This document shows, piece by piece, positions 31 through 12,746 of a stretch of 12,746 nucleotides of DNA (position 1 is its first letter; every line of letters begins with the position of its first letter). The stretch comes from Prevotellaceae bacterium (lineage in GTDB: Bacteria > Bacteroidota > Bacteroidia > Bacteroidales > UBA932). The notes beneath the pieces were generated by a model. The model was not told the origin of the DNA and did no database searches. It saw only the letters and a program-made list of their open reading frames with translations. Location: assembly GCA_031278135.1 (NCBI GenBank), contig JAITKY010000124.1, forward strand, positions 1 through 12,746. Reading direction: 5' to 3'. Position numbers and translations under genes: made by a program.

Positions 31-822
31 TTATTTATCTGAATCAGAACTTTTACCGATTTTTTGCATGAGTTTCGAAACAGCAGCCTCAATCGACAGT
101 TCGCTACCCAAAAGACGTATAAATTCACTGCCGATAATTGCACCGCCGGCATTTTCGAATGCTGCGTTGAGCGTTGTCTTGTTCGATATTCCGAAACCTA
201 TTAGACGCGGATTTTTCAAATTCATGGCGTTAATTCTTCTGAAATAATCCAATGTTTTCTCGTCGAAACAGTCTTTGGCTCCGGTAGTTGAAGCAGTCGA
301 AACCATGTAGATAAAGCCCGAAGTATTTTTGTCTATCAAACGTATCCGTTCTTCCGACGTTTCGGGAGTTATGAGCATGATAAATTCAATTCCGTACTGT
401 TTACCTAACAATTTGAACATCTGCATATAATCGTCGAAAGGCAGGTCGGGAATGATAACTCCGTCGATACCTGTTCTTTTACATTCGCTACAAAATTTTT
501 CGACGCCAAACTGCATGATCGGATTGAGATATCCCATCATTATCAAAGGAATATTCACTTCGTCACGTATTTTTTCGACTTGGGAAAATAGTTTTTTCAA
601 TGTCATTCCGTTATTGAGCGCCGCAGTTCCGCTCTGTTGAATTACGGGACCGTCAGCCATAGGATCGGAGAATGGAATTCCTGCCTCGACCATGTCGGCG
701 CCCTGTTTTTCAAGTTCTTTGACGATTTTTGCCGTATCGTCGAATTGCGGATATCCTGCCGTGAAATAAACCGACAAAATGTTTTTCTGTTTCTCTTTGA
801 ATAGTTTATATATCCTGTTCAT
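31..822 (-). CDS. trpA: Tryptophan synthase alpha subunit
   Basis: TrpA cleaves indole-3-glycerol phosphate to indole and glyceraldehyde-3-phosphate, and channels indole to TrpB in the cytoplasmic alpha2-beta2 complex. The 263-residue TIM-barrel protein has normal family length. The catalytic Glu is in EAGIPFSDP (Glu46) and the catalytic Asp in MADGPVIQ (Asp57). The flexible loop STASTTGA and the phosphate-binding stretches GFGISN and GGAIIGSEF are present, so it looks complete and active. Its ATG lies 17 nt inside the end of trpF in another frame, which suggests translational coupling. trpB is not next to it, and the other trp genes are either beyond the left edge or elsewhere. The C-terminus is short and polar (KSSDSDK). 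The identification is secure. Confidence 0.97.
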   Translation of the reverse strand: MNRIYKLFKEKQKNILSVYFTAGYPQFDDTAKIVKELEKQGADMVEAGIPFSDPMADGPVIQQSGTAALNNGMTLKKLFSQVEKIRDEVNIPLIMMGYLNPIMQFGVEKFCSECKRTGIDGVIIPDLPFDDYMQMFKLLGKQYGIEFIMLITPETSEERIRLIDKNTSGFIYMVSTASTTGAKDCFDEKTLDYFRRINAMNLKNPRLIGFGISNKTTLNAAFENAGGAIIGSEFIRLLGSELSIEAAVSKLMQKIGKSSDSDK

Positions 823-1456
823 CCGTTTGTCTGAAGAGATTCAATAATTTTTTTACCTGTTCGACATTTTTCAGCCCTGGAGAATCCTCAAATGCGCTAT
901 TGACGTCAATACCAATACATAACTTGTGACGGTTATCCCTGATATGTTCGGTGTCTGCGAGTGTAATTCCCCCGCTCATGAAGAACGGTTTGTTCATCGT
1001 GTAGTTTGTTAATAAGTTATGGTCGAACTTTTTCCCCGATCCGCCATACAGTTCTGTCTTTGCATCGAAAAGGAAATAATCGCAAACCTGTTCATAATCA
1101 TACATATCGTCAAAATCTTCTTTGGATGTTATACCGAAAGCCTTGATTATTTCGCATTTGTATTTTGTCTTCAATTCCGCACAATATTCGGGAGTCTCAT
1201 TTCCATGAAGTTGTAAGACATTAAACCTGTAATATTCTGCTGTTTCGACAACATGCTCGATTTTAGCGTTCACAAATACTCCTACCGATAATGTATTGGA
1301 GAATAAAGATTTGAGAACTGCATGATTTAATTCTGCGGCATAACGCGGCGACCGTTCATAGCATACAAAGCCCATATAATCAGGATGTAACATTGCTATT
1401 TCCGCAATGTTAATGACATTCCGCATTCCACATATTTTTACTCTAATTCTATCCAT
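806..1456 (-). CDS. trpF: Phosphoribosylanthranilate isomerase
   Basis: TrpF carries out the Amadori rearrangement of phosphoribosylanthranilate to CdRP, the third step of tryptophan synthesis. From the ATG at 1456 the product is 216 residues, a normal length for a stand-alone enzyme. The N-terminus MDRIRVKICGMR carries the catalytic Cys (Cys9). The second catalytic residue is the Asp in LFDAKTELYGGSGKKFDH, and GIDVNSAFEDSPGLKN matches the C-terminal phosphate-binding signature. The reading frame stays open upstream into the T9SS cargo gene, but this ATG gives the family-typical start. A TATCTTTG promoter element lies 30 nt before it. Two in-frame ATGs at 1477 and 1474 are possible alternatives. 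The gene overlaps trpA by 17 nt. Confidence 0.93.
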   Translation of the reverse strand: MDRIRVKICGMRNVINIAEIAMLHPDYMGFVCYERSPRYAAELNHAVLKSLFSNTLSVGVFVNAKIEHVVETAEYYRFNVLQLHGNETPEYCAELKTKYKCEIIKAFGITSKEDFDDMYDYEQVCDYFLFDAKTELYGGSGKKFDHNLLTNYTMNKPFFMSGGITLADTEHIRDNRHKLCIGIDVNSAFEDSPGLKNVEQVKKLLNLFRQTDEQDI

Positions 1457-3511
1457 ATATAATATATCAAACATCATTATTTCGCACAAAGATATAAAAC
1501 TGTTATTAATATTCTGCGATAATAATTTTTTTATTTTCCGCACTTTTTTGTCGGTGTCCCACGCTCTCAGAAGGTAGATTCCCGCCGCGACGCTTGTAAC
1601 ATCAATATTTCCCGATACATTTTCGAAAACTTTCACAAGTACTCCCGAAAGCGAATACAGTTCTACTTTTAAAGATGTTAACGGACGATTGTCGTCGTCG
1701 TCCAAATAGACGATTTCTTTCGCCGGATTTGGATATGCTTTGAAATTTCGCCCGTTACTGTTTTCTCTTACAACCTCATTGAGTTCAACGTAATTGGTGG
1801 GAAATTGCGAATCAGCACGGCAAAACACCGGACGTATCATCAGCGAGCCGTCGAAAACCGAAGGCTCCCACATTTGTCCAAGACTGTAGAATACATTACT
1901 TTTGGAGTTGCGGTTTCTGTCAAACCCGATGTTCAAAAAACCTTCGTCGGTCTGAAGCCATCCGACGTAAAATATCTCGCCTTCAGAAAGATATACAGGT
2001 TTTGCGAATTTGTATGCGACATATCTGTTCAGATTGTTCAGACTGTCGAACACAGGTTTGCCACCTGTTTCGCTGTGTATCAGTTCACCCGGAACGCCTC
2101 CGGCATCATTCCAGACGGCAACGATGAAATTGTGATTCGTATTGGCGTCGTTCACAGTCCGGTTGAAATACATGTACACGCCGCGGAGACTGTCAGCCAT
2201 GTATGTATGGAATTTTACCGCTACTTTTCCCAGCGACGAGCCACTCCCGAAAAGTCCGTATCCGTTTTCAGCCGTCCCGTCGTCGTAAGCGTAGCAGTCT
2301 TTAAACTCGTAAACGATTCTGTTTGTGTCGTTATAGCGTAATGCAGTTCTGAATTTCGACGGGTCATTATCGGTATCAATCCAACTCTGCAACTCGAACG
2401 CCGCCGAATCGCCGCTGATAGAAAATTCGTATCGCGGTATTGCATACGAAAGATTTATCGTGCTTCCGTCAGGAATGTTTTCAGCGCCTGCGGAATACGA
2501 CAATGTCCTGCCTAAAGTTCCATATATGGAGCGCAATCGAAAATTACGTGTAACGCTTCTGATACCCCATCCGAGATTTGTGTAATTCAACTCCAGATTC
2601 ATCGGATCTTCGAACAAATCGGCTTTTGCTGCCTCGAAATGTGTAGCCGGAACGGTTTCGTAATCTGTTGTCAGCCTTTTAGGTTCTCCGATTAACGCAA
2701 TGTCTGGAATATTCGGATTGTTCGCTGTTCTGTTTTTATCTAAATAAACAAAATCGATATGCCAATGGTCTGATGCAGTGCTACGTCCGGGAAAACTCGG
2801 ATGAACATTGATACTTGCGTAATTAATAAACCGGAAACGGAACCCGTTCCTTAAATATTTAACATCTTCGATTTTGATATTCGCCCTGAAAAATTTGAAT
2901 CCTATACTGTCGTCTTCGATAACAGTTTTAGTATTAGCCAAATGGTTATACATTTCAATCCTGCTGTCGGAAATAGCCGAAGCGCCCCACACTTTATCCC
3001 AAACTGTATCCGCAGACGAAGAAAATTCCACAATCAGAGAATCAACGCTTTCGGGCATGTCGCCGTAACCTTTCGGCTGAAAATAAAAACTCAGACTGAC
3101 CGAATCGGCAGGCAAATAAGCCAATTGGATAAGTCCGGATGTCAAAGTGTCTGCCGCAAAAACGGAACTTGCAGCGATGTCGTAGATTTTTCCCTTGCTG
3201 TCGAACGGATCGAAAGTTGCAACTCCCACAGTAGGAGGATTTATCGCAAAAGTCCTGTTTACGTATATCGACTGACTGTTAGTCCACAAGTCCAAATTCG
3301 GAACCACTTGTCCGGGTTTCGAAAAATCATCAACAAAAGGCAATTCTATAACGGAAATTGACTTCGTTTGTAAAAATTTAACTGTCCGAACCGTATGAAT
3401 ATTTTCGTTGAGACCGGTCAATACCTCCTGCGCCCTCGCTTCCATAGCCGGAATCGCAAAGGCTAAAAACAACATACTTAATGGTATATACCTTTTAAAC
3501 ACTTTCGCCAT
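806..3511 (-). CDS. T9SS type A sorting-domain protein, open frame continuing into trpF
   Basis: From the ATG at 3511 the protein starts with a signal peptide (MAKVFKRY, hydrophobic stretch, AxA-type site near EARAQE). About 560 residues of beta-rich, Asn/Asp/Ser-rich sequence follow, including a jelly-roll-like part (SFYFQPKGYGDMPESVDSL). Residues about 593-666 form a type A T9SS sorting domain: YPNPA, LYSLSGVLVKVF, AAGIYLLRAW, and a basic tail ending KKLLSQ. The native protein should therefore end near base 1514, secreted through T9SS and attached to the cell surface. No stop codon occurs there. The frame runs through 19 codons into TrpF, giving 901 residues. An in-frame TTG at 3532 lies inside the promoter's -7 element, so 3511 is preferred. 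The cargo's activity is not recognised. Confidence 0.8.
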   Translation of the reverse strand: MAKVFKRYIPLSMLFLAFAIPAMEARAQEVLTGLNENIHTVRTVKFLQTKSISVIELPFVDDFSKPGQVVPNLDLWTNSQSIYVNRTFAINPPTVGVATFDPFDSKGKIYDIAASSVFAADTLTSGLIQLAYLPADSVSLSFYFQPKGYGDMPESVDSLIVEFSSSADTVWDKVWGASAISDSRIEMYNHLANTKTVIEDDSIGFKFFRANIKIEDVKYLRNGFRFRFINYASINVHPSFPGRSTASDHWHIDFVYLDKNRTANNPNIPDIALIGEPKRLTTDYETVPATHFEAAKADLFEDPMNLELNYTNLGWGIRSVTRNFRLRSIYGTLGRTLSYSAGAENIPDGSTINLSYAIPRYEFSISGDSAAFELQSWIDTDNDPSKFRTALRYNDTNRIVYEFKDCYAYDDGTAENGYGLFGSGSSLGKVAVKFHTYMADSLRGVYMYFNRTVNDANTNHNFIVAVWNDAGGVPGELIHSETGGKPVFDSLNNLNRYVAYKFAKPVYLSEGEIFYVGWLQTDEGFLNIGFDRNRNSKSNVFYSLGQMWEPSVFDGSLMIRPVFCRADSQFPTNYVELNEVVRENSNGRNFKAYPNPAKEIVYLDDDDNRPLTSLKVELYSLSGVLVKVFENVSGNIDVTSVAAGIYLLRAWDTDKKVRKIKKLLSQNINNSFISLCEIMMFDILYMDRIRVKICGMRNVINIAEIAMLHPDYMGFVCYERSPRYAAELNHAVLKSLFSNTLSVGVFVNAKIEHVVETAEYYRFNVLQLHGNETPEYCAELKTKYKCEIIKAFGITSKEDFDDMYDYEQVCDYFLFDAKTELYGGSGKKFDHNLLTNYTMNKPFFMSGGITLADTEHIRDNRHKLCIGIDVNSAFEDSPGLKNVEQVKKLLNLFRQTDEQDI
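1487..1494 (-). promoter_or_regulatory. Putative trpF -7 promoter element (TATCTTTG)
   Basis: On the minus strand TATCTTTG fits the Bacteroidota -7 consensus TAnnTTTG exactly and ends 30 nt before the trpF ATG. No TTTG is found 19-21 bp upstream, so the -33 element is missing or degenerate. Its place just after the end of the T9SS sorting domain suggests an old intergenic region that kept the trpF promoter. Confidence 0.5.
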
Positions 3512-3529
3512 AACAAAATAAACAAGGCG

Positions 3530-3560
3530 CAAAGTTATAACATATTTTTATAATCACAAA
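3530..3560 (-). promoter_or_regulatory. Bacteroidota promoter of the T9SS cargo gene
   Basis: On the minus strand TTTG (3557-3560) is followed after exactly 19 bp by TAACTTTG (3530-3537), a full match to the -33/-7 consensus. The -7 element ends 18 nt before the ATG at 3511, leaving a leader of about 12 nt. The whole promoter fits in the gap after the upstream gene's stop at 3567, so the cargo gene can be transcribed on its own. It also rules out the in-frame TTG at 3532 as the start. Confidence 0.72.
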
Positions 3561-3566
3561 TTTTAT

Positions 3567-5720
3567 TTATTCGCTTTTATAATACACCTTATTATCTGCT
3601 GAAATTATAAGATAGTAGGAACTGCCTTTTTCATCGCTCACTTCTATTTTATTTTTTGCACTTATCACATCGACATACTCGTTGCTGATTTTCGTAACCA
3701 GCAGAGGATAATACGGGAATGGAGCATCGAATGTTTTCAGCGACAACTCATTGCCTGAGGCGTCGACAGTATAGACAAATAAATTGATTTGTTTATTATC
3801 TGTTGTATAAACTTTACCTGCAGCGTCCTTCACTTCGCTGTAAGCGCCATAGATATACAGTTGATTATTAGTCCTTATGACGTTGGACAAATATCCTGTA
3901 AACTGTAAAGAACTGTTCCACACCGTCGCCAGACTCGAATCCAATAAATACAAATGCAATACATCGTCGGAAATATCATAAGACGAATACGTATTTCCTT
4001 TAAGCGCAACTAAAAATGTTTCACTGATATCGTCGTAAATCAACTTGCGTGGAACGGCTGTCGAAGCAAGTTTGACATTCTTTTTCTCATTTCCGTTTGC
4101 ATCCAGAAGATACAGATAATTAGTGATTTCGTTATTGCCATCTACCGAAACGACAACCGCAAAATTGTAATCCGAATGGTCGATCAGGATTCCGCGCGCT
4201 TTTCCCTCTTTTCTGTCGAAAGTTTTGAGCCACTCAACATCTCCAAAATCAGACACTAAAGCAACAAACGCCTTTGTTTCCGAATTATTGACATACGTGC
4301 CAGCGACAAACACTTTTTTATCCGAAGTGACTGATTTTGCGTGAATAAAATAACCTGCTTCGCCCGTCTTATCTGCCGGTACAATTGTCGTATATAAATT
4401 ACCGCTTTCATACGGTATTATGCTGGCATTTACCGGTTTAAGAACATTATTTTTATACGCGTCCAAAACCGACTGTAAAGCCAAATTGTTTGCCGTCGAT
4501 TCGTTTTCCAGATATGCTTGAAATCCTGCATAATCCCTGTAATTTTTTTTAAAGAAAGCACTGTATTTCTTTATGGCTTCGGGATTGGTTTTACTTGACG
4601 TCAAACTTAATGCGGAATCGACAACCTGTTTTTTCGCAATCAAATCGTAATAAAATGTATTCGATTTCGCATAGTTATTGGGAGAATTGAGCCTTTTATC
4701 AGCCACATTATCAGCGTTGTAATACAGACATTTTATTTTTTCTTCCTGATAAGTCAATAGCGACGCAACAACCGAGTTATAGTCATATTTGTATATTTTA
4801 TTAATAATAAGCGGATTAATCGTATAATCAGGAGCAATATCCGTTTTATCCAAACGTGACAGTTTTTCGATATAATCAAGATTTTTCGTGTGCACTTCCT
4901 CTGCCTGTTGATACAAAAAAGCCACGTCGGTATTCAGTACCGCATTGAAAGAATCGACCCATGACTTGAAATCCCAGAGCGTTATATTTTTAGCAATAAA
5001 ATTTGAAGAAGTCAGCCCGTGCAGACGATACACAGGCACAGGCAACAGCGAATAACTGATTTTATAGTCGCCCATAGGATATTCTTCAAGCGAAAGTTTC
5101 AGTTTTTCAAGATAATAGAGAGTCGAATCGAAGTTAGTTTGCAAATCTTTCAGATTTTTATTCAATTCGCTGTCCACCAGAAAATATAAATCGTTCAGAC
5201 GGCTGTTCTGCGCATTAATTTTGCCGAAGGTCTCGATGCAGTCGTTATATTTATAGATTCCTTTTATTAAATATTCCTGATTTTGGTCGAAATATTTTTT
5301 GTATTCCAACACATTTGCTATCCGGGTATCGATATCTTTTTTGATATTTTCGAAAGTCCGCGGTTCCGGAACATCCTGATAATAAGTTCCGTTTTTCTTG
5401 GCTTCTTTTGCGTCAAGATAATGTTTGGCAAGCGACAGATAAGTCTTAGCATTTGATATACACTGCATTACATTCTCCGATTGCAAAAACGGGTCGTATT
5501 GACGTATCATTTTCTGGGAAATCAGACCTAACTGATAGTATCCGTTTGCGTTAGCGTAATCTTTCGAAGTCGTTGCTGCCTGATAATTAAACAGGGTTTG
5601 AAACGCTTCATAATCTTTCATGTTCTTAATTGCTTCGTAGAGAACTTTGTAGTCCTGCTGTCCGTAAGCGGTTAAAATAATCAATTGTAAGAAAGAACAA
5701 ATCAACAATTTCCGTATCAT
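3567..5720 (-). CDS. Exported protein of unknown function, helical N-terminus and propeller-like C-terminus
   Basis: I do not recognise a family for this 717-residue protein. A signal peptide is visible (MIRKLL, hydrophobic core, cleavage near TAYGQQ). The Cys at position 8 lies within the hydrophobic core and is not a lipobox, so it is probably a soluble periplasmic or surface protein. Residues about 25-440 are helical and rich in Tyr, Lys and Asn, with TPR-like spacing in places (YYQLGLISQKM, YLSLAKHYLDAK). Residues about 443-717 are repeating beta segments such as KVFVAGTYV, FVALVSDFGDVEW, LYLLDANGN and LYIYGAY, which look like beta-propeller blades. There is no T9SS sorting domain. It starts 13 nt after the OmpA-family gene and is probably co-transcribed with it, so a joint envelope role is likely but inferred. 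Confidence 0.85.
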   Translation of the reverse strand: MIRKLLICSFLQLIILTAYGQQDYKVLYEAIKNMKDYEAFQTLFNYQAATTSKDYANANGYYQLGLISQKMIRQYDPFLQSENVMQCISNAKTYLSLAKHYLDAKEAKKNGTYYQDVPEPRTFENIKKDIDTRIANVLEYKKYFDQNQEYLIKGIYKYNDCIETFGKINAQNSRLNDLYFLVDSELNKNLKDLQTNFDSTLYYLEKLKLSLEEYPMGDYKISYSLLPVPVYRLHGLTSSNFIAKNITLWDFKSWVDSFNAVLNTDVAFLYQQAEEVHTKNLDYIEKLSRLDKTDIAPDYTINPLIINKIYKYDYNSVVASLLTYQEEKIKCLYYNADNVADKRLNSPNNYAKSNTFYYDLIAKKQVVDSALSLTSSKTNPEAIKKYSAFFKKNYRDYAGFQAYLENESTANNLALQSVLDAYKNNVLKPVNASIIPYESGNLYTTIVPADKTGEAGYFIHAKSVTSDKKVFVAGTYVNNSETKAFVALVSDFGDVEWLKTFDRKEGKARGILIDHSDYNFAVVVSVDGNNEITNYLYLLDANGNEKKNVKLASTAVPRKLIYDDISETFLVALKGNTYSSYDISDDVLHLYLLDSSLATVWNSSLQFTGYLSNVIRTNNQLYIYGAYSEVKDAAGKVYTTDNKQINLFVYTVDASGNELSLKTFDAPFPYYPLLVTKISNEYVDVISAKNKIEVSDEKGSSYYLIISADNKVYYKSE

Positions 5721-5733
5721 AAATTATGCTTTT

Positions 5734-7803
5734 TTAATTTGTTGTATTTTCAATAATTTTAATTTCTACACGACGATTTTTTGCTCTGTTTTCGTCGGAA
5801 TCGTTTGCTACCAAAGGTTGCAATTCGCCGTATCCTTTCGATTGTACACGACTTTTGTTTATATTGTTGTTGATTAAGAATTTAACGACCGATTCGGCTC
5901 GTTTGTCCGACAGACGGAAGTTGTATTCGTTTGAACCGACATCATCGGTATGAGCAGATATTTCGATTTTCAATTCAGGATTTCGTTCCATGAAACTCAG
6001 GAGGCGGTTCAATTCCGCGTATGATTCCGTATTTAGTTCGGCGGAATTTGTTTCGAATGTTATGTTGTTGAAAACCATCTTCGTTTCGGTGGTCAATAGA
6101 TCCAGCACGATATCTTTAGTTTCTCTGTTGGTTGTCGTAACATCCAGAGTTGTATTGAAATAGGTGTATCCTTTTTTGGTGACGTCCAATTCGTAAGTAT
6201 TATTGGTACGCAATGCGAGTACAGGATTTCCATTATCGTCGTAACTCAATAGAGATGAAGCGTTTTCGTCACGATAGAGGTTTTTGATTTCGACATTTAC
6301 CGGAACAATATTTTTGCCATCGTTATCTTTAACGTTTAAAGTCAGCAATTTACGTGAGGCTTTAAGTTCCAGACTTTTTTCGAAATCGCTGTATACCACG
6401 TCGGTTCGTAAATCGAAATATGTTTCGTAAGGTTCGAAACTTTCGCTTTCGATTGTGATTTTGTAGTTGTTCCCGATATTTAGTTTGCAGTTATATTTCC
6501 CTTTCGATACATTCGCTATACTTTGCTGTGCAAGAGGACGTTTTGTAAGCGAATCGGAAATTATTACTTTAGGCGACAATGGGTAAAACAACTCATTATC
6601 ATATATATTCAGTTCCAGATTTACGTTGTCGTAAAGCGTGACATCAAATTTTCCTTCCGTTTCGTTCCCGATGAATCCCAAATCCTTGTAATAAAATGTG
6701 TGTGAATAGTTTTCTTTCGAGAAATCGATTTTATAGAATGTTCCCTGCGTGAATATAATCGAATATTTACCTTCGTCATTTGTCAGAAACTCACCGTTAG
6801 TAACTGAGGTAATAGCGTCCTGCACATAGATTTTGGCTTCGATTGGCTGCTTCGAATATAAATCTGTGATTGTACCTGTCAAAACGAAAGTTTTTGCAGG
6901 TGACTGGTCGGAAGGCAAAGACACTTTATACACCTTATTTGGCTGTTTTTTAGATTTTTTCGCAGTCATAATGAAATAATCGCCTTTACTGTTTACCATT
7001 GGCGACAAATCATCGTATCCGGTATTCACTGCTTCGACGTAAACAGGATAGTACCAGTTATTTTCATCAATGCGACGGGCATAATAGATGTTGTAGTCGT
7101 CGTCGGATATCTTTTTACCGGCTTTATTGACATCCTGACGTTTCGATGCAAAAAACAGCGAGTTATTGTCTGCGCAGATAAATGGCGTTTCCTGTGACCC
7201 GATATTAAATTCTTTGGGAAGATATTTTGGTCCAACCCATTTGTTCTCTTTGTCTTTTTCGAAGAGTAACAGTTCTTTAACCACCTCTTTTTCCTTTTTA
7301 GTGTCCGGTTGAGGTTTTGTTTTCAAGACAAAAAGCGTCTTGTTGTTCGATGAGATTGCCGGCGAAAATAAATCGGCACTTGTCGAAACAGGGCTTCCAA
7401 GGCGTTGAGGTTCACCCCATCCTGCTTTCGTCTTTCGCGAAAAAAATATATCAAAATAGTTTGTTTCTATTTTGGCATGAAAAAACAGCATGGTTCCGTC
7501 ATGATTAAACGAAAACCCGCCAACTTCGTTTTTTGTCTGGTTAATCAACTTGTTGATATACTCAAATGGAGCGGGCGGCATCCATTTGCCATTTTGCAGA
7601 TGCGATTCGTAAGCCGTTGTCGAATTTTCATCTACAGTCAAAAAAACGAGATACTTACCATCCGGCGTCAAAGCCGGATACTTCATTGTTTTCTGAAAAT
7701 CAGGAAATATATCCACCCCACTAAACTCCTGAGCATGACCATGTATCAGAATACTTTGAATAAAAATAAAACTTAAAACAGTTTTTAACAAAATTTTCAT
7801 CAT
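5734..7803 (-). CDS. OmpA-family envelope protein with beta-propeller and carboxypeptidase-regulatory-like domains
   Basis: From the ATG at 7803 (or the adjacent one at 7800) the protein is 689 residues. A signal peptide (MMKILLKTVLSFIFIQS...HGHAQE) lacks a lipobox Cys. Residues about 35-300 hold PD40/WD40-like blades (YPALTPDGKYLVF, GGFSFNHDGTMLFF, SPAISSNNKTLFV, LSPMVNSKGDYFIM). About 310-565 hold three carboxypeptidase-regulatory or Ig-like beta units, the first starting at VLTGTITDLYSKQPI. Residues 576-689 are an OmpA C-terminal domain with the peptidoglycan-binding Asp (HTDDVGSN, Asp620) and Arg (NRRVE, Arg677). It should bind peptidoglycan under the outer membrane. The propeller-CRD-OmpA order recalls PorE of the T9SS, which additionally has TPRs and is a lipoprotein, so PorE identity is not claimed. 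The frame is open to 7872, but that lies upstream of the promoter. Confidence 0.88.
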   Translation of the reverse strand: MMKILLKTVLSFIFIQSILIHGHAQEFSGVDIFPDFQKTMKYPALTPDGKYLVFLTVDENSTTAYESHLQNGKWMPPAPFEYINKLINQTKNEVGGFSFNHDGTMLFFHAKIETNYFDIFFSRKTKAGWGEPQRLGSPVSTSADLFSPAISSNNKTLFVLKTKPQPDTKKEKEVVKELLLFEKDKENKWVGPKYLPKEFNIGSQETPFICADNNSLFFASKRQDVNKAGKKISDDDYNIYYARRIDENNWYYPVYVEAVNTGYDDLSPMVNSKGDYFIMTAKKSKKQPNKVYKVSLPSDQSPAKTFVLTGTITDLYSKQPIEAKIYVQDAITSVTNGEFLTNDEGKYSIIFTQGTFYKIDFSKENYSHTFYYKDLGFIGNETEGKFDVTLYDNVNLELNIYDNELFYPLSPKVIISDSLTKRPLAQQSIANVSKGKYNCKLNIGNNYKITIESESFEPYETYFDLRTDVVYSDFEKSLELKASRKLLTLNVKDNDGKNIVPVNVEIKNLYRDENASSLLSYDDNGNPVLALRTNNTYELDVTKKGYTYFNTTLDVTTTNRETKDIVLDLLTTETKMVFNNITFETNSAELNTESYAELNRLLSFMERNPELKIEISAHTDDVGSNEYNFRLSDKRAESVVKFLINNNINKSRVQSKGYGELQPLVANDSDENRAKNRRVEIKIIENTTN

Positions 7804-7840
7804 ATTTAAACCTTTTGAAAAAAAATGAACATTTTTTTTG

Positions 7841-7848
7841 CAAAGGTA
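7841..7848 (-). promoter_or_regulatory. Putative -7 element of the OmpA-family gene (TACCTTTG)
   Basis: TACCTTTG on the minus strand matches TAnnTTTG and ends 37-40 nt before the start codons at 7803 and 7800. The expected -33 TTTG is not seen at 19-21 bp, and the flanks are T/A homopolymer runs. It favours the start at 7803 or 7800 over the longer frame from 7872, and would drive the two-gene unit 7803-3567. Confidence 0.5.
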
Positions 7849-7904
7849 AATATTTTTTTCATAAAAAAACATTTTTCATAAAAAAAGTTTTTCGTTTATT
7901 TTTT

Positions 7905-12264: not shown

Positions 12265-12327
12265 TAAGGCGCTGTCAATAAATAAACTACTTAAATAATT
12301 TTGTAGATAGAATTGTTGAAAAAGCAT

Positions 12328-12335
12328 TACCTTTG
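12328..12335 (+). promoter_or_regulatory. Putative transposase -7 element (TACCTTTG)
   Basis: TACCTTTG matches the Bacteroidota -7 consensus TAnnTTTG exactly and ends 13 nt before the transposase ATG. The nearest TTTG upstream (12300-12303) is 24 bp away, longer than the usual 19-21 bp, so the promoter may be weak. It lies inside the proposed element, as expected for an insertion sequence that carries its own promoter. Confidence 0.45.
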
Positions 12336-12348
12336 TCGCAATAAAACA

Positions 12349-12746
12349 ATGGAAGAGCAAGAATCTATAAAAAAGCGTATTGAGATAAATATGCATCAGT
12401 TAACTGAAATACAGACAAGAATATACCTTGCATCTGAAGCAGTTAGTTATGGTTTGGGAGGGATTACGCTCATATCCACACTGTCAGGAGTTAGCCCCAA
12501 AACCATCCAATTTGGTATAAAAGAGTCAAATAAAGAGGTCGAAACGGCTTCGCCAGGTAAAATACGCCGGTCAGGAGCGGGCAGAAAAAAGGAAAAAGAC
12601 AGGCAACCGGGTTTAGAAAAAGCGATCATGGATATTGTAGAGGCTCATACTGTTGGCGACCCAATGCGTGTAATAATATGGACAAGCAAAAGTTCAAGAA
12701 ACATTCAAACAGAATTACAACATCGAGGATATAAAGCATCCCACGA
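12349..12746 (+). CDS. ISAzo13-family transposase, N-terminal part (cut by window edge)
   Basis: The frame opens at an ATG at 12349 (MEEQESIKKRIEINMHQL) and stays open for 132 codons to the window edge. The N-terminal region matches the layout of ISAzo13 transposases (DDE_Tnp_ISAZ013 type). A helix-turn-helix part, RIYLASEAVSYGLGGITLIS then LSGVSPKTIQFGIKE, is followed by the linker KIRRSGAGRKK. Next comes the segment LEKAIMDIVEAHTVGDPMR, then WTSKSSRNIQTELQHRGYKASH, which leads into the catalytic domain. The DDE residues lie beyond the edge, so activity cannot be judged. No stop or frameshift is seen in the visible part. Confidence 0.85.
   Translation, partial: MEEQESIKKRIEINMHQLTEIQTRIYLASEAVSYGLGGITLISTLSGVSPKTIQFGIKESNKEVETASPGKIRRSGAGRKKEKDRQPGLEKAIMDIVEAHTVGDPMRVIIWTSKSSRNIQTELQHRGYKASH

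What the first reader, a model, noticed from the sequence alone, without database searches (positions are those of the whole stretch)
1457..1516. T9SS cargo protein runs in frame into TrpF with no stop codon
The sequence shows one open frame from 3511 to 806 joining a signal peptide, a complete type A T9SS sorting domain ending near KKLLSQ (codon 1516-1514), a 19-codon linker and a complete TrpF. Known biology makes a real fusion hard to use: the T9SS sorting domain must be C-terminal, and a signal peptide would remove TrpF from the cytosol. The simplest reading is loss of the cargo stop codon. CAG at 1516-1514 is one transition from TAG, and the preceding TCG and TTA codons are also one step from a stop. 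If real, the cargo may be mis-sorted while trpF is rescued by its own start. If it is a base error, the gene model should be split.
Basis: partly seen in the sequence, partly recalled or inferred. Interest (0 to 1): 0.72.

Follow-up and report, generated by a model that had tools for sequence, protein, structure and literature searches.

The report
Frameshift joins cargo gene to trpF
A secreted-protein gene appears to run into a tryptophan-synthesis gene only because one base is missing at a run of A's just before its end, so its intact stop codons are read out of frame; this is an ordinary frameshift or assembly error, not a new fusion protein.

Summary
The open frame is real in the sequence: 806-3532 on the minus strand (ATG at 3511), carrying a T9SS type A sorting domain and a complete PRAI (TrpF) domain. 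The proposed cause, substitution of the cargo stop codon, does not fit. Aligned with eight same-genus relatives, the window alone lacks one base, at the A run 1532-1526; this is the only gapped column among columns 7-197. Read one base back from that run, with no base changed, the window gives IIIAEY and then tandem TAA at 1508-1503. The nearest listed homologue (88% identical) ends KKIIIAGY. Of 120 listed homologues, 119 end 2-8 residues after the KK position; the longest is 707 aa and none carries PRAI. TrpF has an open frame of its own in the 10 of 12 same-genus relatives where it was found. So the cargo stop is intact but bypassed, and the spacer happens to be open and in register with trpF, which has its own start at 1456. 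Whether the missing base is a real mutation or an assembly error cannot be settled without reads. Either way the gene model should be split. Interest is low.

The parts
806..3511 (-). apparent fused open frame, T9SS cargo plus TrpF, 901 aa from ATG 3511
   Evidence: frame open; Por_Secre_tail residues 593-660, PRAI residues 691-890
1526..3511 (-). cargo gene up to the A run, with an N-terminal signal-peptide-like stretch
   Evidence: the 120 listed homologues are 36-88% identical and cover 60-74% of the query, its cargo part; signal peptide judged by eye only
1532..1735 (-). T9SS type A sorting domain (PF18962)
   Evidence: residues 593-660
1526..1532 (-). run of 7 A; place of the one-base deficit relative to eight kin (kin runs: 8, 8, 7, 7, 7, 5, 4, 4)
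1503..1526 (-). natural cargo end in the other frame: IIIAEY then tandem TAA (1508-1503)
   Evidence: bases read as they stand; kin ends KKIIIAGY, KKIIITE, KKIIIAG
1457..1525 (-). spacer after the KK codons, open in the trpF frame; it contains the 19-codon linker 1513-1457
   Evidence: 485 of 5000 shuffles also stop-free; the corresponding spacers of four kin hold the cargo stop
1487..1494 (-). TATCTTTG, matching the Bacteroidota -7 promoter consensus TAnnTTTG (recalled); weak
   Evidence: 16 matches in the window against 13.6 expected; absent from the 4 of 4 syntenic kin spacers checked
806..1456 (-). trpF, 216 aa, own ATG at 1456
   Evidence: the four syntenic kin align from this ATG; 10 of 10 kin TrpF have open frames of 215-238 aa
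31..822 (-). trpA, overlapping the end of trpF
   Evidence: the same order cargo-trpF-trpA in four kin

Best explanation
Two ordinary adjacent genes, a T9SS cargo gene and trpF (then trpA), look like one because the cargo gene lacks one base at a run of A's near its end, compared with relatives. The shift makes the frame miss the intact tandem TAA, whose first stop begins 17 bases past the run, and by chance run through a short AT-rich spacer into trpF. The cargo normally ends KKIII or the like plus a few residues and leaves through T9SS. TrpF is made separately from ATG 1456. Shown here: the one-base deficit, the intact out-of-frame stops, separate genes in kin. Inferred: that the deficit is recent, that the cargo is exported, and what products the cell makes. 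Not settled: real mutation or assembly error, which I hold about equally likely.
For: Alignment of nine loci: the only gapped column among columns 7-197 is column 175, gapped in the window alone, with the eight kin ungapped. The other frame of the unmodified window gives IIIAEY**, against IIIAGY in the 88% homologue P0001 and IIITE* in G004. 119 of 120 listed homologues end 2-8 residues after KK; the remaining one, P0092, 537 aa, stops before the sorting domain. 10 of 10 same-genus kin with trpF have it in a frame of its own, 215-238 aa, against 913 in the window (2 of 12 kin gave no trpF match, and the G009 match has a TAA inside near a contig end). Across the run and the following bases the window and G004 share 22 of 25 alignment columns, so the DNA is homologous and the register differs.
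Against: No reads are held, so the deficit cannot be seen in raw data. No second assembly of this species was found: the best listed cargo homologue is 88% identical, so it is not known whether other strains share the shift. A frame-break scan of 95 kb from 16 other contigs of the same genome gave no confirmed break among the 10 of 11 candidate pairs tested, so the assembly is not generally riddled with breaks; that scan cannot see short tails such as this one. Run length by itself is not diagnostic: three kin (G003, G005, G009) also have seven A's but keep the frame, because the base before the run differs.
Confidence: 0.93

Rival explanations
1. Sub-case of the best explanation: the missing base is a sequencing or assembly error and no cell carries the fused frame.
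For: The deficit sits at an A run, where length errors are commonest (general knowledge). The genome is a fragmented bin (304 contigs, 74% complete, 4.5% contamination) with two trpC genes and a second, partial cargo-like copy on contig C208, which suggests mixed kin. Apart from its end the cargo gene shows no stop or frame break.
Against: Six other runs of 7 or 8 A or T within the window's reading frames (848, 4543, 7440, 7640, 9262, 11915) leave their frames open. No confirmed break among the 10 of 11 candidate pairs tested in 95 kb. Short-read consensus at runs of 7-8 is usually right (general knowledge; the sequencing method of this bin is not known from any call).
Confidence: 0.45
2. Loss of the cargo stop codon by substitution at or near CAG 1516-1514.
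For: CAG is one transition from TAG; the frame is open there.
Against: The DNA alignment with eight kin needs a one-base gap upstream and then matches, and the tandem TAA is intact in the shifted frame at the place where kin stop.
Confidence: 0.02
3. The frameshift is real and partly corrected: polymerase or ribosome slippage on A AAA AAA restores the normal cargo end in some products, while the rest read into TrpF.
For: In the window's frame ATA AAA AAA contains A AAA AAA, a slippery heptamer (recalled); slipping back one base reaches IIIAEY**. A run of 11 A's rescues Citrobacter rodentium tssM1 at about 20-25% (passages of PMC4256274).
Against: Only seven A's. No significant RNA structure at the junction (z = -0.12). 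The run is not conserved in length: 8, 8, 7, 7, 7, 5, 4, 4 in eight kin, and AAA is the commoner Lys codon anyway (1335 AAA to 314 AAG), so there is no sign of a selected site.
Confidence: 0.08
4. A selected bifunctional fusion that exports TrpF or tethers it to the cell surface.
For: The frame is open and both domains are present and near complete.
Against: No fused relative among the 120 listed homologues or the 10 same-genus kin with trpF; where one match spans both parts, in G004 and G006, there are stops between. Linker residues have no counterpart in the four syntenic kin. TrpF substrate is cytosolic (general knowledge).
Confidence: 0.01

Closest known systems
T9SS type A cargo proteins (PF18962 / TIGR04183 Por_Secre_tail)
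   Same: N-terminal signal-peptide-like stretch (by eye), sorting domain above cut-off, 119 of 120 listed homologues with PF18962, SprA in the same genome
   Different: in this window the frame does not stop after the domain, owing to a one-base deficit
Phosphoribosylanthranilate isomerase TrpF (PF00697)
   Same: PRAI positions 1-191 of 193, own ATG aligned with kin, followed by trpA
   Different: lies behind a cargo gene, whereas in G002, G008 and G009 it lies within 80 bases of trpC; the NCBIfam TrpF models match below their cut-offs (best 155.7 against 215)
Genes rescued by slippage at poly-A runs, such as Citrobacter rodentium tssM1 (PMC4256274, abstract and passages read)
   Same: frame change at an A run shortly before a stop
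   Different: 7 A's against 11, run length not conserved in kin; no evidence of rescue here
TrpC-TrpF and TrpF-TrpB fusions (NCBIfam NF006945, NF010376)
   Same: TrpF within a longer frame
   Different: the matches come from the TrpF part alone and lie far below those models' cut-offs (113 against 380, 125 against 819)

Membership tests
T9SS type A cargo | sorting domain PF18962 / TIGR04183 | tested here: met
   38.7 bits against cut-off 27; TIGR04183 32.2 against 23
T9SS type A cargo | domain at the protein's C-terminus | tested here: inconclusive
   not in the frame as assembled; yes in the other frame (IIIAEY**) and in 119 of 120 listed homologues
T9SS type A cargo | secretion machinery in the genome | tested here: met
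   SprA_N (PF14349) in G000, open frame 2428 aa; found in 8 of 13 genus genomes (bins are incomplete) and in 0 of 14 control genomes; other components not searched
T9SS type A cargo | Sec signal peptide | not tested
   the N-terminus looks like one by eye; no predictor was run
TrpF (PRAI) | complete PRAI domain | tested here: met
   profile positions 1-191 of 193, 107.5 bits against 22.7; but NCBIfam equivalog models are below cut-off (best 155.7 against 215)
TrpF (PRAI) | isomerase activity | not testable with these tools
   needs an assay
Selected cargo-TrpF fusion protein | the same fusion in relatives | tested here: not met
   0 of 120 listed homologues, of 398 at the threshold; 0 of 10 same-genus kin with trpF
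Programmed or slippage-based recoding site | conserved slippery run with a stimulating structure | tested here: not met
   A run 8, 8, 7, 7, 7, 5, 4, 4 in eight kin; fold z = -0.12

The most novel reading that the evidence does not exclude
The A run is a real, variable slippage point, and cells carrying the shorter form make a mixture of normally ended cargo and a cargo-TrpF chimera, so that the end of a T9SS sorting signal is switched by run length.
Probability: 0.03. Interest if true: 0.5.

Novelty: not a real feature. Interest (0 to 1): 0.1.

Why it matters
Mainly for annotation: the 901-aa model should be split into a cargo gene with a frameshifted end and trpF. If the missing base is real, the locus would be a natural test of whether T9SS tolerates a large folded domain behind its sorting signal, which the short tag extensions described in the passages I read of PMC11285876 do not answer.

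Tried and rejected
A genuine fusion: rejected; no listed match other than the window's own spans both parts without stops. Longer open frames flagged (G059 958, G123 797, G131 511) were fetched and their ORFs listed: a 663-aa cargo, a cargo read with a longer N-terminus (775 aa), and separate ORFs of 269 aa (not scanned, looks like TrpC) and 219 aa (TrpF); none is a cargo-TrpF fusion. Stop-codon substitution: rejected by alignment. A stimulating RNA structure: none. A conserved promoter for trpF: TAnnTTTG matches are no commoner than chance (16 against 13.6) and the motif is absent from the four syntenic kin spacers. General frame damage in this genome: a codon-usage scan of 95,100 bases in 16 other contigs plus the window gave 13 candidate pairs, 11 outside the window; 10 of the 11 were tested by Pfam, and in each the two members hit different families, so they are neighbouring genes. 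The first L059 pair was not tested. The scan needs long pieces on both sides and would not find an 8-codon tail. An earlier count said 12 instead of 11; 11 is right.

Not done: TrpF was not searched on its own in the protein database; no structure was predicted; metagenome contigs were not scanned (none allowed), so the DNA around P0001, the closest homologue, was not seen. Only 120 of the 398 homologues are listed and were examined. The alignment used 8 of the 12 same-genus kin; the tails of the other four (G002, G008, G010, G012) were only read, where each has a stop 2-5 codons after the KRII or KRVV motif.

Full report
Observation. The minus strand is open from 3532 (ATG at 3511) to the stop at 806. 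The 901-aa reading from ATG 3511 holds Por_Secre_tail at residues 593-660 and PRAI at 691-890, both above Pfam's cut-off. The coordinates in the finding, the CAG at 1516-1514 and the 19-codon linker are right. The window is the whole of contig C144 of a fragmented bin of 2.05 Mb, 304 contigs, 74% complete. Named relatives are titled 'Prevotellaceae bacterium' metagenome bins.

Relatives. Searching 5.8 billion proteins with the whole reading gave 398 matches at E <= 0.001 among the 7994 candidates scored, of which the best 120 are listed. The longest of the 120 is 707 aa, 119 of 120 carry PF18962, and none carries PRAI. Measured from the KK position of the window, 119 of 120 end within 2-8 residues; the other, P0092 (537 aa, no PF18962), stops before the sorting domain. 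In the genus, 13 genomes are held; trpF is found in 11 including the window's own. In the 10 kin its open frame is 215-238 aa; in the window it is 913. The match in G009 has a TAA inside, near a contig end. In four kin (G004, G001, G007 and, with the cargo cut by the contig end, G006) the order cargo-trpF-trpA is the same as in the window, and each has a stop between cargo and trpF.

Cause. The kin read, after the conserved K-K or K-R, ATT ATT ATC GCA GGA TAA or variants of it. The window holds largely the same bases (22 of 25 columns shared with G004) but in another register. A nine-sequence alignment puts one gap, in the window alone, at the A run; no other column of columns 7-197 is gapped in any row (columns 1-6 are present in G003 only, and the spacer beyond is ragged). 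The window's run is seven A's (1532-1526). The kin have 8 (G004, G001), 7 (G003, G005, G009), 5 (G011) and 4 (G006, G007), so run length alone is not the difference; the window is one base short over the stretch, and the two syntenic kin G004 and G001, which have the base, have eight. Read one base back, the window gives IIIAEY and then TAA TAA at 1508-1503; the 88% homologue P0001 ends in IIIAGY. So the stop is not lost: it is out of frame.

Why the frame runs on into TrpF. The spacer from the KK codons to the trpF ATG is 69 nt at 20% GC. A dinucleotide shuffle is stop-free in this frame in 485 of 5000 cases; with about 1/3 for register (estimate) an accidental in-frame join has a chance of roughly 3%. 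In G004 the register one base on is also stop-free, though not in frame with trpF.

TrpF expression. The TrpF of the four syntenic kin aligns from the window's ATG at 1456, and that ATG follows the cargo stop directly or closely in those kin. A TAnnTTTG match lies at 1494-1487, but such matches are no commoner than chance in the window (16 against 13.6 expected) and the four kin spacers lack it, so a separate promoter is not shown. Joint transcription with the cargo gene is plausible from the short spacers (inference).

Real or error. Neither can be shown. For an error: an A run, a fragmented bin, and signs of mixed kin in it (two trpC genes; a second, 70% identical partial cargo copy at a contig end). 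For a real indel: six other runs of seven or eight A or T in the window's reading frames leave those frames open, and of 11 candidate frame changes in 95 kb of other contigs the 10 tested are neighbouring genes of different families. That scan cannot detect a short shifted tail. I put the two at about even odds.

Consequence if real. Passages of PMC11285876 say that loss of two residues at the end of RgpB, or replacement of the last six of PorU, disturbs export, whereas His-tag extensions of PorU, PorZ and PPAD do not (PPAD also tolerated loss of two residues but not of four); passages of PMC4804311 agree on the weight of the last residues. The shifted frame keeps KKLL in place of KKII, so the last strand may be little disturbed (inference), but a TrpF-sized extension was not among the cases in those passages. 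Slippage on the A run could restore the normal end in part; PMC4256274 (abstract and passages) shows this for a run of 11, but here the run is shorter, its length is not conserved and no RNA structure stands out.

Verdict. The open frame is as described, but it is best read as a one-base frameshift at an A run with an intact, bypassed stop. The model should be split. No novelty is claimed.

Noticed in passing
31-1456 and kin L003, L004, L006, L012: trpF-trpA sits behind the T9SS cargo gene in the window and four same-genus kin, while in G002, G008 and G009 trpF follows trpC within 80 bases: perhaps a relocated piece of the trp operon.
   Followed up: partly
own genome, contigs C208, C289 and C295: A second, 70% identical partial cargo-like copy at a contig end and two near full-length trpC genes suggest that the bin mixes related species.
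   Followed up: partly
12313-12744: Open frame running off the contig end with the start of a DDE transposase domain (PF07592), possibly why the contig ends there.
   Followed up: no
3567-7872: Upstream of the cargo gene on the same strand: a 717-aa protein with no Pfam or NCBIfam match and a 712-aa OmpA-domain protein whose best NCBIfam match is the T9SS protein PorE, far below its cut-off (133 against 600).
   Followed up: no
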